A stretch of DNA of 64,000 nucleotides. Origin: a virus. Of this stretch, positions 7,476-45,481 are shown in pieces. Every line of letters begins with the position of its first letter. Positions within the stretch are counted from its first letter, which is position 1. Under the pieces are notes generated by a model that was not told the origin of the DNA, did not search any database, and saw only the letters and a list, made by a program, of their open reading frames with translations. The stretch spans positions 1 through 64,000 of IMG/VR virus record IMGVR_UViG_3300032286_000510. One strand, 5' to 3'. Both the position numbers and the translations under genes were made by a program.

Positions 7476-8216
7476 TTACAAATTCTTATAATCAATTTCC
7501 AATTTTTTACATCGTTTTCTTACGGCGTTATCACTAACACCTAAGATTTCTCCAACTTTAGTCATTGGATATTGTTTTATGAGAATTATGAGTTCTTCTT
7601 TTGATATCTCAAATTTTCTAGATTTGACTCCATTTCTTTCGGAAGAACATTTTCTACATCTATCGTTTTGTTTTTTGATTCTACAGTTACAATCTAGACA
7701 TTTGTTTATTAGTGGTAAATTTCTTCCTGAAAAAGTATGAGTTTGTGAATGGCAATTTGGGCATAGTAATCTTAGATTTTTTATCCGATTATCATTCCTA
7801 ATCCCATTTATATGGTCTAATTGTAATGAAATTGGTTTATTGTTCCAAACATCATATATGGAACATTCTGAACACTTATTTTCTAAAATATTTTCAGAAA
7901 CTAATCGTTTCTTTAAATGCCCTCTAGAATAACTTGAATTTTCTGTTAATATTGATGATAGATCTTTTTTATTATCTTTTGAAAATTTTCCTATACATAT
8001 AGATTTTCTATATTCATTGGAGTTTTTTTCAAATTTGGATAAATCATATCCTTCTTCTTTTATTCTAGACATAAATGTATTTCTCATTCCAGAATACGGA
8101 TTTAAGTTAAACTTTTCTAGAATTTCAGTATATGAATTCAATGAGTCTAATGCATTCTGAATTTCTTCTTTGGTTAGTTTCCAAATTTTACTTCTTTTTT
8201 CTCTTGCGGTTTTCAT
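7476..8216 (-). CDS. HNH homing endonuclease, 246 aa
   Basis: Minus-strand gene inserted between tRNA-His and tRNA-Thr. A helical N-terminal part is followed at about residues 110-165 by an HNH core with zinc-type cysteines: NKCSEC, then LQLDHINGIRNDNRIKNLRLLCPNCHSQTHT. A second Cys cluster (CLDCNC, CRKC) and a C-terminal helix-turn-helix (YPMTKVGEILGVSDNAVRKRCKK) follow. The C-terminal part is shared with the HNH gene at 9621. Freestanding HNH endonucleases in phages cut DNA lacking the gene and spread by repair. tRNA clusters are frequent insertion sites. Confidence 0.85.
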   Translation of the reverse strand: MKTAREKRSKIWKLTKEEIQNALDSLNSYTEILEKFNLNPYSGMRNTFMSRIKEEGYDLSKFEKNSNEYRKSICIGKFSKDNKKDLSSILTENSSYSRGHLKKRLVSENILENKCSECSIYDVWNNKPISLQLDHINGIRNDNRIKNLRLLCPNCHSQTHTFSGRNLPLINKCLDCNCRIKKQNDRCRKCSSERNGVKSRKFEISKEELIILIKQYPMTKVGEILGVSDNAVRKRCKKLEIDYKNL

Positions 8217-9576: not shown

Positions 9577-9619
9577 CTAACCTTTAAACTATTATAAATA
9601 ATAATGTGTTGGAGGTTAG
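9577..9619 (+). promoter_or_regulatory. Late promoter enclosed in an RBS-sequestering hairpin
   Basis: CTAACCT (9577-9583) pairs with AGGTTAG (9613-9619), which contains most of the Shine-Dalgarno GGAGG (9611-9615). TATAAATA (9593-9600) is in the loop. Read-through RNA would hide the ribosome site, whereas RNA starting at the late promoter would not. Confidence 0.65.
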
Positions 9620-9620
9620 T

Positions 9621-10157
9621 ATGTCTGGTAAAAGAGTTGTCGAGTTTCGTCAACGAAGAAAAAAATGGGCAGTAGAAGCATTTGGTGGTAAATGTGGAAT
9701 TTGCGGATATAATAAATGTGTTGAGGGTTTAGACTTTCATCATATTGACCCATCACAAAAAGACTTTTCACCATCAGCATCTACAGCAGGCAGACAAGTA
9801 TTTGTCGAAGAACTTAAAAAGTGTGTCTGTATTTGTTCTAATTGTCATAGAGAAGTTCACGCAGGAATTGCAAATATTCCTAATGAAATTCTTAAATTTG
9901 ATGAAAGTTTTGCTACTAAACCTTTTCCAGAAAAACCAAAACATCCTTGTAAAGAATGTGGAAAACTGACTAACATCAATCAGAAATTTTGTTCTGTAAA
10001 ATGTTCTACTAAAAGCAGAGAGGTTGCTGATTGGCCTAGTAATGAAGAATTAAAAATTCTTGTTGCTAAAAATGGATATTCTGCTACTGGAAGAATGTTT
10101 GGTGTTAGTGATAATGCAGTAAGAAAAAGATTGAACAAATCTTGCCGGGGGAGTTGA
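9621..10157 (+). CDS. HNH homing endonuclease, 178 aa
   Basis: The ATG at 9621 is set by GGAGG at 9611-9615; a GTG at 9606 is in frame but precedes the Shine-Dalgarno. The HNH core is CGICGYNKCVEGLDFHHIDP, then KCVCICSNCHREVHAG. A second zinc ribbon (CKECGKLTNINQKFCSVKC) follows, then a C-terminal helix-turn-helix (NGYSATGRMFGVSDNAVRKRL) shared with the HNH gene at 7476. Inserted between tRNA-Asn and tRNA-Met; late-expressed. Confidence 0.88.
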   Translation: MSGKRVVEFRQRRKKWAVEAFGGKCGICGYNKCVEGLDFHHIDPSQKDFSPSASTAGRQVFVEELKKCVCICSNCHREVHAGIANIPNEILKFDESFATKPFPEKPKHPCKECGKLTNINQKFCSVKCSTKSREVADWPSNEELKILVAKNGYSATGRMFGVSDNAVRKRLNKSCRGS

Positions 10158-10177: not shown

Positions 10178-10248
10178 CGCAGACGAGTGTAAAGGTTGCA
10201 CGATAGGTTCATACCCTATAGGACGGAGTTCAATTCTTCGGTCTGCCA
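10178..10248 (+). tRNA. tRNA-Met (CAT), possible initiator
   Basis: Loop TTCATAC on ATAGG/CCTAT, T arm CGGAG/CTTCG, acceptor GCAGAC/GTCTGC with a C-C mismatch at position 1:72, a mismatch position typical of initiator tRNAs. CCA appears encoded at 10249-10251. The three G-C pairs of classical initiators are absent from the anticodon stem. Confidence 0.8.
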
Positions 10249-10256
10249 CCAAATAA

Positions 10257-10327
10257 GGGGGATTAGTTAAACGGTATAACGGGTGCTTTGCAAGCACTTA
10301 TTAACAGTTCGATTCTGTTATTCTCCA
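10257..10327 (+). tRNA. tRNA-Ala (TGC)
   Basis: Acceptor GGGGGAT/ATTCTCC, loop TTTGCAA on GGTGC/GCACT, T arm AACAG/CTGTT. Directly followed by the tmRNA acceptor piece. Confidence 0.88.
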
Positions 10328-10332
10328 TTGTC

Positions 10333-10387
10333 CAAGAGGATGAGAAGTCTGATGTTTCGGACAGAGTTTCAATTACTCTCATCTCCA
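10333..10387 (+). ncRNA. ssrA: tmRNA acceptor piece (permuted gene)
   Basis: The segment contains the tmRNA-type TTCGGAC, a T arm AGAGT/ACTCT with loop TTCAATT, then the 3' acceptor strand CATCTCC and discriminator A. Its acceptor strand pairs with GGGGGTG at 10394-10400 (7 bp, two G-U), and GATGAGA can pair with TCTTATC of the coding piece. The acceptor half therefore lies upstream of the coding half, the circularly permuted two-piece form known from the marine Synechococcus/Prochlorococcus lineage. Exact ends are estimates. Confidence 0.8.
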
Positions 10388-10393
10388 TTACTT

Positions 10394-10630
10394 GGGGGTG
10401 CCAGGTTTCGACGGAGCATAAAGGTCTTATCTGTTGACGGGACAAGTCCATAAACGCAAACAACATTGTTGCTTTCTCTCGTCAAACCGCATTGGTTTGA
10501 ACTAAACGAGTGAGGGGGTTATAAGTTTCCTTCTTACCCAAAACTTACAAGAGGGTGTAATGCCCTCTATTTTTGTGTCTATTTGAACTCGTGCAAAAAA
10601 TGCACAGGTTCATCTTGTGACGGTCTTTGA
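10394..10630 (+). ncRNA. ssrA: tmRNA coding piece with 14-residue tag
   Basis: It begins with acceptor strand GGGGGTG and the tmRNA signature GGTTTCGACGG. The tag frame starts at GCA 10456 and reads ANNIVAFSRQTALV, then TGA (10498-10500). Cyanobacterial tags of this type end in -VAA, so the two final alanines are missing here. After the stop, pseudoknot-like pairings are visible: GGGT/ACCC, TAAGTTT/AAACTTA, AGAGGG/CCCTCT, and a GTGC/GCAC hairpin near 10595. It would rescue stalled ribosomes; whether tagged proteins are degraded is doubtful without the -AA end. The 3' end is an estimate. Confidence 0.82.
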
Positions 10631-43193: not shown

Positions 43194-43595
43194 ATGGCAG
43201 TAACAATTTCTCGCAGTTTTAAAGATATTAGTTTGTCTTTTGCGAGACATCCAGTTACAAATGATGTAACCATTCTCAAAAATGAGGATGCAATCAAAAG
43301 ATCTGTCATAAATTTGGTCAGAACTCGCATTAATGAAAGATTTTTTAATAGTTTGTTGGGTTCTTCTGTGGATAATTCATTATTTGAACTCCAATCTTCT
43401 GGTGTATCTTCATTTTTACAAGAAGAAATCACATCACTTCTCGAAAACTTTGAACCTAGAATTAGATTAAGAAGTGTTGTGATTGATACTCCAGAAGATT
43501 CTAATGATTTAAATATTCGTATTTCTTATGATATTGTTGGTTTACCATTTCCAACTCAAAATATAGAATTCATCTTACAACCAACTAGAGTATAA
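43194..43595 (+). CDS. 25: Baseplate wedge protein gp25
   Basis: The 133-residue length and fold pattern fit the gp25 (GPW/gp25) family: SFKDISLSFARHPVTNDVTILKNEDAIKRSVINLVRT, then ERFF...GS, and LLENFEPRIRLRSVVID. In T4 it forms part of the wedge core with gp6 and gp53 next to the tail-sheath initiation site. The stop overlaps the gp6 start (ATAATGG). Confidence 0.9.
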   Translation: MAVTISRSFKDISLSFARHPVTNDVTILKNEDAIKRSVINLVRTRINERFFNSLLGSSVDNSLFELQSSGVSSFLQEEITSLLENFEPRIRLRSVVIDTPEDSNDLNIRISYDIVGLPFPTQNIEFILQPTRV

Positions 43596-45481
43596 TGGCA
43601 TTCAATCAGTTTACCAACTTAGATTTTGGCGATCTACGAACTCAGATTAAAGATTATCTGAGAACAAATTCTAATTTTACTGATTTTGATTTTGAAGGAT
43701 CCAACTTTTCGGTCCTGATTGATATTCTTGCTTATAATAGTTACATTACATCATACAATACCAATATGGCTATCAATGAGTCATTCATTGATAGCTCCAC
43801 ATTAAGAGAAAATGTAGTTTCTTTAGCAAGAAATATTGGTTATGTGCCAAGATCTGTTAAATCCGCAAAAGCAAAGATTAGTTTTAGTGTAGATGTTAGT
43901 AATATTAATACAAGATTAGTAAAATTGAATGCTGGCGTAGTTGCTTTGGGGTCAGTTCAAGGCGGAAATTATATTTTTTCAATTCCTGAAGATATTTCAG
44001 TAACACCAAATCAAAATGGAATCGCAATATTTGATAATGTCGAGATTTATGAAGGAACATTTTTAAATAAGACCTTTAATGTAGATAATTCGCAAACAAA
44101 TGCAAAATATATCTTACCAAATGCAAATATTGACACCTCAACAATTAGAGTTTCTGTTACTGGCACCACAACAGAGAAATATGAACTCTATACAAATATT
44201 TTTGCAGTAGAACCAAACTCAAAAATCTTTTTAATTCAAGAAATTGATGATGAAAAGTATCAAATTTTGTTTGGTGATAATATTTTTGGAAAAAATCCAG
44301 ACAATGGCAGTAAAATTACTGTATCATACATTATAACAAATGGAATTGATGGTAATGGTGGTGCAAATTTCACATTTTCTGGCAATTTATCTTATATTGA
44401 GAATGGAATTACTAAACCAGTCACTTCCGGCATATCTCTCCTAACAACTCTACAATCGTCTGAAAACGGTGATAGCATAGAATCTATAGATACTATCAAA
44501 TATCTTGCCCCAAGGGTCTACGCATCGCAATATAGGGCAGTTACGTCTAATGATTATACAAGTTTAATTCCATTTTTATATTCAAATGTTGACTCGGTAA
44601 GCGCATATGGTGGAGAAGAACTTGATCCTCCACAATATGGCAAAGTTTACATTACAATTAAACCAAAAAATGGTGAAACTCTTTCCGATATTACGAAAAA
44701 TTCAATCAAAAATGATTTAAAGAAGTATACAGTAGCAGGTATTAAACAAGAATTTATTGATTTGAAGTATTTGTATGTCGAATATGATTCCACGGTATCA
44801 TATGATCCAAGTTTTATATCAAATAAAGAAAATCTCCATACAAGAATTCAATCAGCAATCAATTCGTATTCAAAATCTTCTGATATTAATTCCTTCGGTG
44901 GAAGGATTAAATATAGTAAGATGATTTCATTGATTGATAATGTGGATAAGGGAATAACTTCAAATATTACTCTCTTAAAAATGAGAAGAAACCTTTCTCC
45001 TGCATATAATGCACTTGCTAACTATGAATTATGTTTTGTAAATAAATTTCACGCAGATGTTTATGGATTTAATATCCGTTCGACACCATTCAAAATAAGT
45101 GGAGTGGATAACGATATATATTTGACCGATCTTCCGGATGATTCAACAGGAAAAACAGGAAAAATTAAATTTTTTACTTTAATAAACGGATCTCCAAATT
45201 TTATCAATAATAATGCTGGAACAGTAAACTACGAAAAAGGAGAAATTATACTATATCCCGTAACTATTACATCTACAACATCTTCTGTTGGAATTGAGAT
45301 TGAAGTTGTTCCGGATTCTAATGACATTATTGCAAAAGAAAATCTTTACATTATCCTAGATACTACAAGTAATAGTTTACTAAATCTTATAGAAGATCCC
45401 ATATCTTCCGGATCTAATAAATCTGGAAATTCTTACGTTCCACCTTCTAGTTTTACAAGCAATAAAAAGTATACGAGATAA
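43595..45481 (+). CDS. 6: Baseplate wedge protein gp6 (baseplate J-like)
   Basis: 628 residues, close to T4 gp6. The start FTNLDFGDLRTQIKDYLRTNSNFTDFDFEGSNFSVLIDIL and LRENVVSLARNIGYVPRSVKSAK are characteristic, and VTSNDYTSLIPFLYSNVDSVSAYGGEE marks the baseplate-J-type domain. gp6 dimers tie the wedges into the ring that rearranges on contraction. Adjacent to gp25 as in T4-like cyanophages. Confidence 0.9.
   Translation: MAFNQFTNLDFGDLRTQIKDYLRTNSNFTDFDFEGSNFSVLIDILAYNSYITSYNTNMAINESFIDSSTLRENVVSLARNIGYVPRSVKSAKAKISFSVDVSNINTRLVKLNAGVVALGSVQGGNYIFSIPEDISVTPNQNGIAIFDNVEIYEGTFLNKTFNVDNSQTNAKYILPNANIDTSTIRVSVTGTTTEKYELYTNIFAVEPNSKIFLIQEIDDEKYQILFGDNIFGKNPDNGSKITVSYIITNGIDGNGGANFTFSGNLSYIENGITKPVTSGISLLTTLQSSENGDSIESIDTIKYLAPRVYASQYRAVTSNDYTSLIPFLYSNVDSVSAYGGEELDPPQYGKVYITIKPKNGETLSDITKNSIKNDLKKYTVAGIKQEFIDLKYLYVEYDSTVSYDPSFISNKENLHTRIQSAINSYSKSSDINSFGGRIKYSKMISLIDNVDKGITSNITLLKMRRNLSPAYNALANYELCFVNKFHADVYGFNIRSTPFKISGVDNDIYLTDLPDDSTGKTGKIKFFTLINGSPNFINNNAGTVNYEKGEIILYPVTITSTTSSVGIEIEVVPDSNDIIAKENLYIILDTTSNSLLNLIEDPISSGSNKSGNSYVPPSSFTSNKKYTR

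What the first reader, a model, noticed from the sequence alone, without database searches (positions are those of the whole stretch)
10333..10630. Phage-encoded, circularly permuted two-piece tmRNA
The acceptor piece (T arm and CATCTCC-A) lies upstream of the coding piece (GGGGGTG...tag). Both acceptor strands and a P2-like helix are complementary across the split. This is the gene form of the picocyanobacterial lineage, now in a phage and within a tRNA cluster, indicating capture from a host.
Basis: partly seen in the sequence, partly recalled or inferred. Interest (0 to 1): 0.85.

Follow-up and report, generated by a model that had tools for sequence, protein, structure and literature searches.

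The report
Cyanophage split tmRNA with altered tag
This virus of cyanobacteria carries its own two-piece RNA for freeing stuck ribosomes, a kind already known in phages, but its tag has lost the two final alanines that every sampled host tag keeps as a destruction signal and ends in valine instead, as in many related viruses.

Summary
Confirmed: a circularly permuted, two-piece tmRNA gene of the picocyanobacterial type lies at about 10338-10573 (Rfam cyano_tmRNA 115.9 bits, cut-off 70) in a 78.9-kb T4-like cyanophage record. Acceptor, T and P2 helices span the split and covary across 30 phage relatives; G3-U70 is invariant. The gene form in phages is not new: it was published in 2022, and five cyanophage isolates carry it, not labelled as tmRNA. 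What appears new is the tag. All sampled host tags end in -AA (47 distinct coding sequences, plus 70 of 70 loci found by covariance model). Of 41 distinct cyano-type phage coding sequences, 30 end in -V, with all four Val codons and all three stops; 6 end in -AA. Other permuted phage tags keep -AA (34 of 36). Best reading: a working trans-translation RNA that borrows host SmpB, with a weakened or retuned degron. The RNA is well supported by sequence; the degron effect is inferred and untested. 'Captured from a host' is only partly supported: phage sequences sit beside the sampled hosts on the tree, not inside them.

The parts
10338..10359 (+). 5' strand of the P2 helix, upstream (acceptor) piece
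   Evidence: Pairs with 10412-10432 in RF01851 and in the consensus fold of 30 phage sequences, with compensated changes
10363..10379 (+). T arm AGAGT-TTCAATT-ACTCT of the acceptor piece
   Evidence: 5 pairs; covaries in 22 distinct phage domains
10380..10387 (+). Acceptor 3' strand CATCTCC and discriminator A73; CCA is not encoded
   Evidence: 7 of 7 pairs with 10394-10400, including G3-U70
10388..10393 (+). Intervening segment TTACTT, expected to be removed when the two pieces mature
   Evidence: Sequence; 5-6 nt in 47 of 49 phage relatives. Removal is inferred
10394..10400 (+). Acceptor 5' strand GGGGGTG, expected start of the coding piece
10406..10432 (+). Conserved TTTCGAC and 3' strand of the P2 helix
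10456..10500 (+). Tag reading frame ANNIVAFSRQTALV-stop (GCA resume codon, TGA stop); ends in Val, without the host's Ala-Ala
10550..10573 (+). Terminal stem-loop AGAGGGTGTAATGCCCTCT and T run, probable 3' end and terminator
   Evidence: Last hairpin of RF01851 and terminator-like site
10257..10327 (+). tRNA-Ala (TGC) directly upstream, last of the tRNA cluster; possibly the same transcript
   Evidence: ARAGORN

Best explanation
The locus encodes a working, circularly permuted (two-piece) tmRNA of the picocyanobacterial type. The precursor, probably transcribed with the tRNA cluster, would be cut by host tRNA-processing enzymes on either side of the 6-nt TTACTT segment, CCA would be added, and the two RNAs would be held together by acceptor and P2 pairing. 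Host alanyl-tRNA synthetase (G3-U70) and host SmpB would charge and deliver it to ribosomes that stall during infection, and the tag would be added to the unfinished protein. Because the tag lacks the host's terminal Ala-Ala and ends in Val, tagged proteins would leave the ribosome but be degraded more slowly, or by another protease, than host-tagged ones. Shown by sequence: gene form, conserved and covarying structure, intact tag frame, consistent loss of -AA in relatives. Inferred: transcription, processing, charging, tagging, and any change in proteolysis.
For: Rfam and ARAGORN calls; covariation across the split, 15 of 26 pairs with compensated changes, and invariant G3-U70; intact tag in every relative read; tag ends V in 30 of 41 distinct cyano-type phage coding sequences against 0 of 47 host ones, with four Val codons and three stops; 70 of 70 host loci found by covariance model, without use of the tag, end AA; other permuted phage tags keep AA in 34 of 36; V-enders not one clade, AU p 0.0002; in Synechocystis, tags ending AAV and ASV are weaker degrons than LVA (PMC3446811); AAV is slower in E. 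coli (PMC9382460). No SmpB in this record or 48 relatives, so host SmpB is needed.
Against: No expression, processing or tagging data. Ends ALV, SLV and QTV have not been measured as degrons as far as I found, and LVA, which also differs from LAA, is a strong degron. No cultured phage found here has a Val-ended tag: S-CAM1 and S-CAM3 end VAA, Sf-FS3 and AG-345-P14 end ATA, S-SSM7 ends VTA, S-CRM01 ends AAL. The count of separate origins rests on 138 columns, and recombination between tag and acceptor parts is possible. No window of the infection cycle is known in which the RNA acts.
Confidence: 0.6

Rival explanations
1. An ordinary phage tmRNA that only tops up host trans-translation. The altered tag end has no functional meaning: it drifted because breakdown of tagged protein hardly matters in a short lytic infection.
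For: The rest of the molecule is conserved while tag length and sequence vary.
Against: Under drift the last residue should scatter; in 41 distinct coding sequences it is V, A or (once) L, and V is kept through four codons and three stops. Other permuted phage tags keep AA.
Confidence: 0.25
2. The tag is retuned to the protease or adaptor of a particular host, and is degraded as fast as the host's own tag or faster. The change is adaptation to a host, not escape from proteolysis.
For: All phage ends are small or nonpolar, as protease-recognised C-termini are; LVA is a strong degron in Synechocystis (PMC3446811).
Against: Every sampled picocyanobacterial tag ends AA, including freshwater Synechococcus, Cyanobium and Vulcanococcus.
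Confidence: 0.12
3. A decoy: the phage RNA competes with host tmRNA for SmpB and blocks trans-translation, as proposed for the tRNA-like-domain-only form of mycobacteriophage DS6A.
For: A tRNA-like-domain RNA resembling DS6A's strongly inhibits tmRNA (PMC4131195; PMC11915505).
Against: Here the messenger part, resume codon and stop are kept in all relatives, which a decoy would not need.
Confidence: 0.03

Closest known systems
Permuted tmRNA of picocyanobacteria (Rfam RF01851; Prochlorococcus, Synechococcus, Cyanobium)
   Same: Same gene order, acceptor and T arm, G3-U70, P2 across the split, no encoded CCA, tag core ANNIV/ANKIV
   Different: Phage tag ends ALV instead of PVAA; sequence falls outside the sampled hosts on the tree
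Permuted tmRNAs of cyanophages S-CAM1, S-CAM3, S-CRM01, S-SSM7, Sf-FS3 and AG-345-P14
   Same: Same type of gene in T4-like cyanophages; in S-CAM1, S-CAM3, S-CRM01 and Sf-FS3 beside tRNA genes
   Different: Their tags end VAA, VTA, ATA or VAAL, not V
Two-piece tmRNA of OM43 phage Melnitz and pelagiphages (PMC9004378)
   Same: Permuted tmRNA in a lytic marine phage
   Different: Alphaproteobacterial type; in Melnitz tied to a glutamine riboswitch; no riboswitch match here
tRNA-like-domain-only RNA of mycobacteriophage DS6A
   Same: Phage-encoded tmRNA relative
   Different: DS6A has little more than the tRNA-like domain (PMC4131195); here the messenger part is complete

Membership tests
Permuted tmRNA, cyanobacterial type (RF01851) | Covariance-model match over the curated cut-off | tested here: met
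   115.9 bits against 70; RF04321 72.6 against 47
Permuted tmRNA, cyanobacterial type (RF01851) | Acceptor 3' half upstream of the 5' half and tag, none downstream | tested here: met
   Upstream half scores 15, best downstream 12 without TTC loop
Permuted tmRNA, cyanobacterial type (RF01851) | G3-U70 alanine identity pair | tested here: met
   Present; 22 of 22 distinct phage domains
Permuted tmRNA, cyanobacterial type (RF01851) | Helices across the split kept by selection | tested here: met
   15 of 26 pairs with compensated changes in 30 sequences
Permuted tmRNA, cyanobacterial type (RF01851) | Two mature RNA pieces | not testable with these tools
   Needs RNA from infected cells
Proteolysis-inducing tmRNA tag | C-terminal Ala-Ala degron as in the host lineage | tested here: not met
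   Tag ends ALV; hosts 47 of 47 and 70 of 70 end AA. Whether ALV still works as a degron is not tested
Functional trans-translation system | SmpB partner | tested here: inconclusive
   No SmpB in this record or 48 relatives, most of them fragments; host SmpB assumed

The most novel reading that the evidence does not exclude
Cyanophages have more than once replaced the host's terminal Ala-Ala degron of the tmRNA tag by a terminal Val, so that phage-driven trans-translation frees ribosomes while sparing or redirecting the tagged proteins: phage control over the degradation step of trans-translation.
Probability: 0.35. Interest if true: 0.7.

Novelty: new variant of a known kind. Interest (0 to 1): 0.5.

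Why it matters
Phage-borne tmRNAs are known, but what they add to infection is not. A sharp difference between phage and host tags at the residues that proteases read turns that question into simple reporter experiments, and suggests that some phages want ribosome rescue without, or with different, proteolysis. It also shows that tmRNA genes sit unlabelled in well-known cyanophage genomes.

Tried and rejected
(1) A better acceptor half downstream of the tag: none. (2) A shorter intervening segment as a phage hallmark: phages have 5-6 nt in 47 of 49 and pattern-found hosts 7 or more, but my host pattern itself required at least 7; hosts found by covariance model include many at 5-6, so this was dropped as an artefact. 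(3) A phage-carried SmpB or ClpP to explain the altered tag: none in 49 records. (4) Val forced by RNA pairing: in some relatives (such as SRQTALV) GTT-TGA lies in a hairpin, but codon, stop and local fold differ in others that still end in V. (5) Cultured phages with Val-ended tags: none found; 11 of 17 cyanophage records tested have no permuted tmRNA. (6) Papers on altered phage tag ends: none found in the held library.

Full report
What is there. The window lies in a 78,931-base virus record. ARAGORN and Rfam both call a permuted tmRNA in the stated region. Reading the sequence: P2 5' strand within 10338-10359, T arm 10363-10379 (AGAGT-TTCAATT-ACTCT), acceptor 3' strand CATCTCC 10380-10386, A73 10387, six bases TTACTT, acceptor 5' strand GGGGGTG 10394-10400, TTTCGAC 10406-10412, tag 10456-10500 (ANNIVAFSRQTALV-stop), terminal stem-loop and T run 10550-10573.

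More than chance. Relatives were collected by DNA pattern from viral contigs. In 22 distinct phage tRNA-like domains the acceptor pair 5-68, which joins the two pieces, occurs as GC, GU, AU, UA and CG; the third pair is G-U in all 22. A consensus fold of 30 aligned phage sequences has 26 pairs, 15 of them with compensated changes, in the T arm, the acceptor and the P2 helix that spans the split. This is a conserved RNA, not a chance match or a remnant.

The carrier. The baseplate wedge protein at 43595-45481 is 58% identical to that of Synechococcus phage S-SSM7, and the best hits are Synechococcus phages; other genes match phage baseplate, helicase and methyltransferase families. It is a T4-like cyanophage. 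The tmRNA follows a tRNA-Ala at the end of a long tRNA cluster.

Is it new that a phage carries this? No. PMC9004378 reported 53 unique two-piece tmRNAs in phage genomes, 50 of them from marine or aquatic samples, with the cyanobacterial lineage shared by phages, and named AG-345-P14. PMC11915505 counts 79 phage tmRNA sequences of all forms. I found the cyano-type gene in isolates S-CAM1, S-CAM3, S-CRM01, S-SSM7 and Sf-FS3; none is labelled tmRNA in the stretches read. Eleven further cyanophage records have none; the records were not a random sample.

Origin. On a tree of the part upstream of the tag (147 rows, 138 columns, few well-supported forks) hosts and phages fall on opposite sides of one branch, support 89/99. 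A host origin is likely from the family the gene belongs to, but it is not a recent copy of any sampled host, and the tree is weak.

The tag. Host tags from the pattern-found set end VAA in 47 of 47 distinct coding sequences. Because that pattern could bias the sample, 70 host loci were then taken from a covariance-model search of 201 genomes, which does not use the tag's end: 70 of 70 end in AA (69 VAA, 1 GAA). Of 41 distinct cyano-type phage coding sequences, 30 end in V, 10 in A (6 VAA, 4 ATA) and 1 in L. None of the viral search patterns specified the tag's end. The V codon is GTT 21, GTA 7, GTG 1, GTC 1, before TGA, TAG or TAA; the residue before it is L, A, T or S. V-enders are not one clade on the tag-free tree (AU p 0.0002; at least 6 changes), with the caveats of a short alignment and possible recombination. 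Permuted phage tags of other types keep AA in 34 of 36. The change is therefore a feature of the cyano-type phage genes, and not of all of them.

Mechanism. Trans-translation with host SmpB is the likely function: no SmpB or ClpP gene was found in this record or 48 relatives, most of them fragments. Terminal LAA-type residues are what ClpXP reads (PMC9382460). In Synechocystis, tags ending AAV and ASV were weaker than LVA (PMC3446811), and AAV is slower than LAA in E. coli. The phage ends VAV and VSV resemble these weak variants; ALV, SLV and QTV have not been measured as far as I found. The most likely effect is a weakened or redirected degron. This step is inference.

Rejected lead. The intervening segment looked shorter in phages, but that came partly from my own host pattern, which required 7 bases or more; host loci found by covariance model include many with 5-6.

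Verdict. The valine-ended tag is the part that deserves a test.

Noticed in passing
window 19043-19155; L008 10101-10218, 10274-10387, 10535-10648, 10651-10768; L374 982-1528 (-); L375 1550-2219: tRNA genes of 113-120 nt with an insert of roughly 24-45 nt in the anticodon arm, several in a row in related phage contigs. In the window, removing 39 nt (TAAAATATATCTTG...TTCACAGCAATTAAACC) would give a perfect 5-bp anticodon stem ACGGC/GCCGT with anticodon TGT; ARAGORN instead places a 41-nt intron with anticodon GTA. Too short for a group I intron; how or whether it is removed is unknown.
   Followed up: partly
window about 18990-19037; L008 about 10221-10269: Just upstream of the insert-bearing tRNAs lies a hairpin TAGATGATTCAGCAATT...AATCATCTA whose loop shares the letters CAGCAATT with the tRNA insert.
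   Followed up: no
L283 (Synechococcus phage S-CRM01): The tmRNA tag reads ANNVVKFRRTAVTSLVAAL: the usual VAA end followed by an extra Leu, another departure from the host end.
   Followed up: no
L062 768-1010 (-): A cyanophage contig (nrdA 84% identical to Synechococcus phages) whose tRNA-like arms equal the host type although its tag ends AVAV; possible recombination or a separate capture.
   Followed up: partly
G048 (genome with L202, Synechococcus WH7803), C1 862774-862885 (-): A second, weak tmRNA_permuted match (51.2 bits, cut-off 47) beside the main gene; may be a false match or a remnant.
   Followed up: no
window 9606-10157 and 7476-8216: Frames inside the tRNA cluster: 9606-10157 matches HNH endonuclease families and 7476-8216 on the other strand looks similar by eye; possible homing endonucleases that spread tRNA or tmRNA genes.
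   Followed up: no
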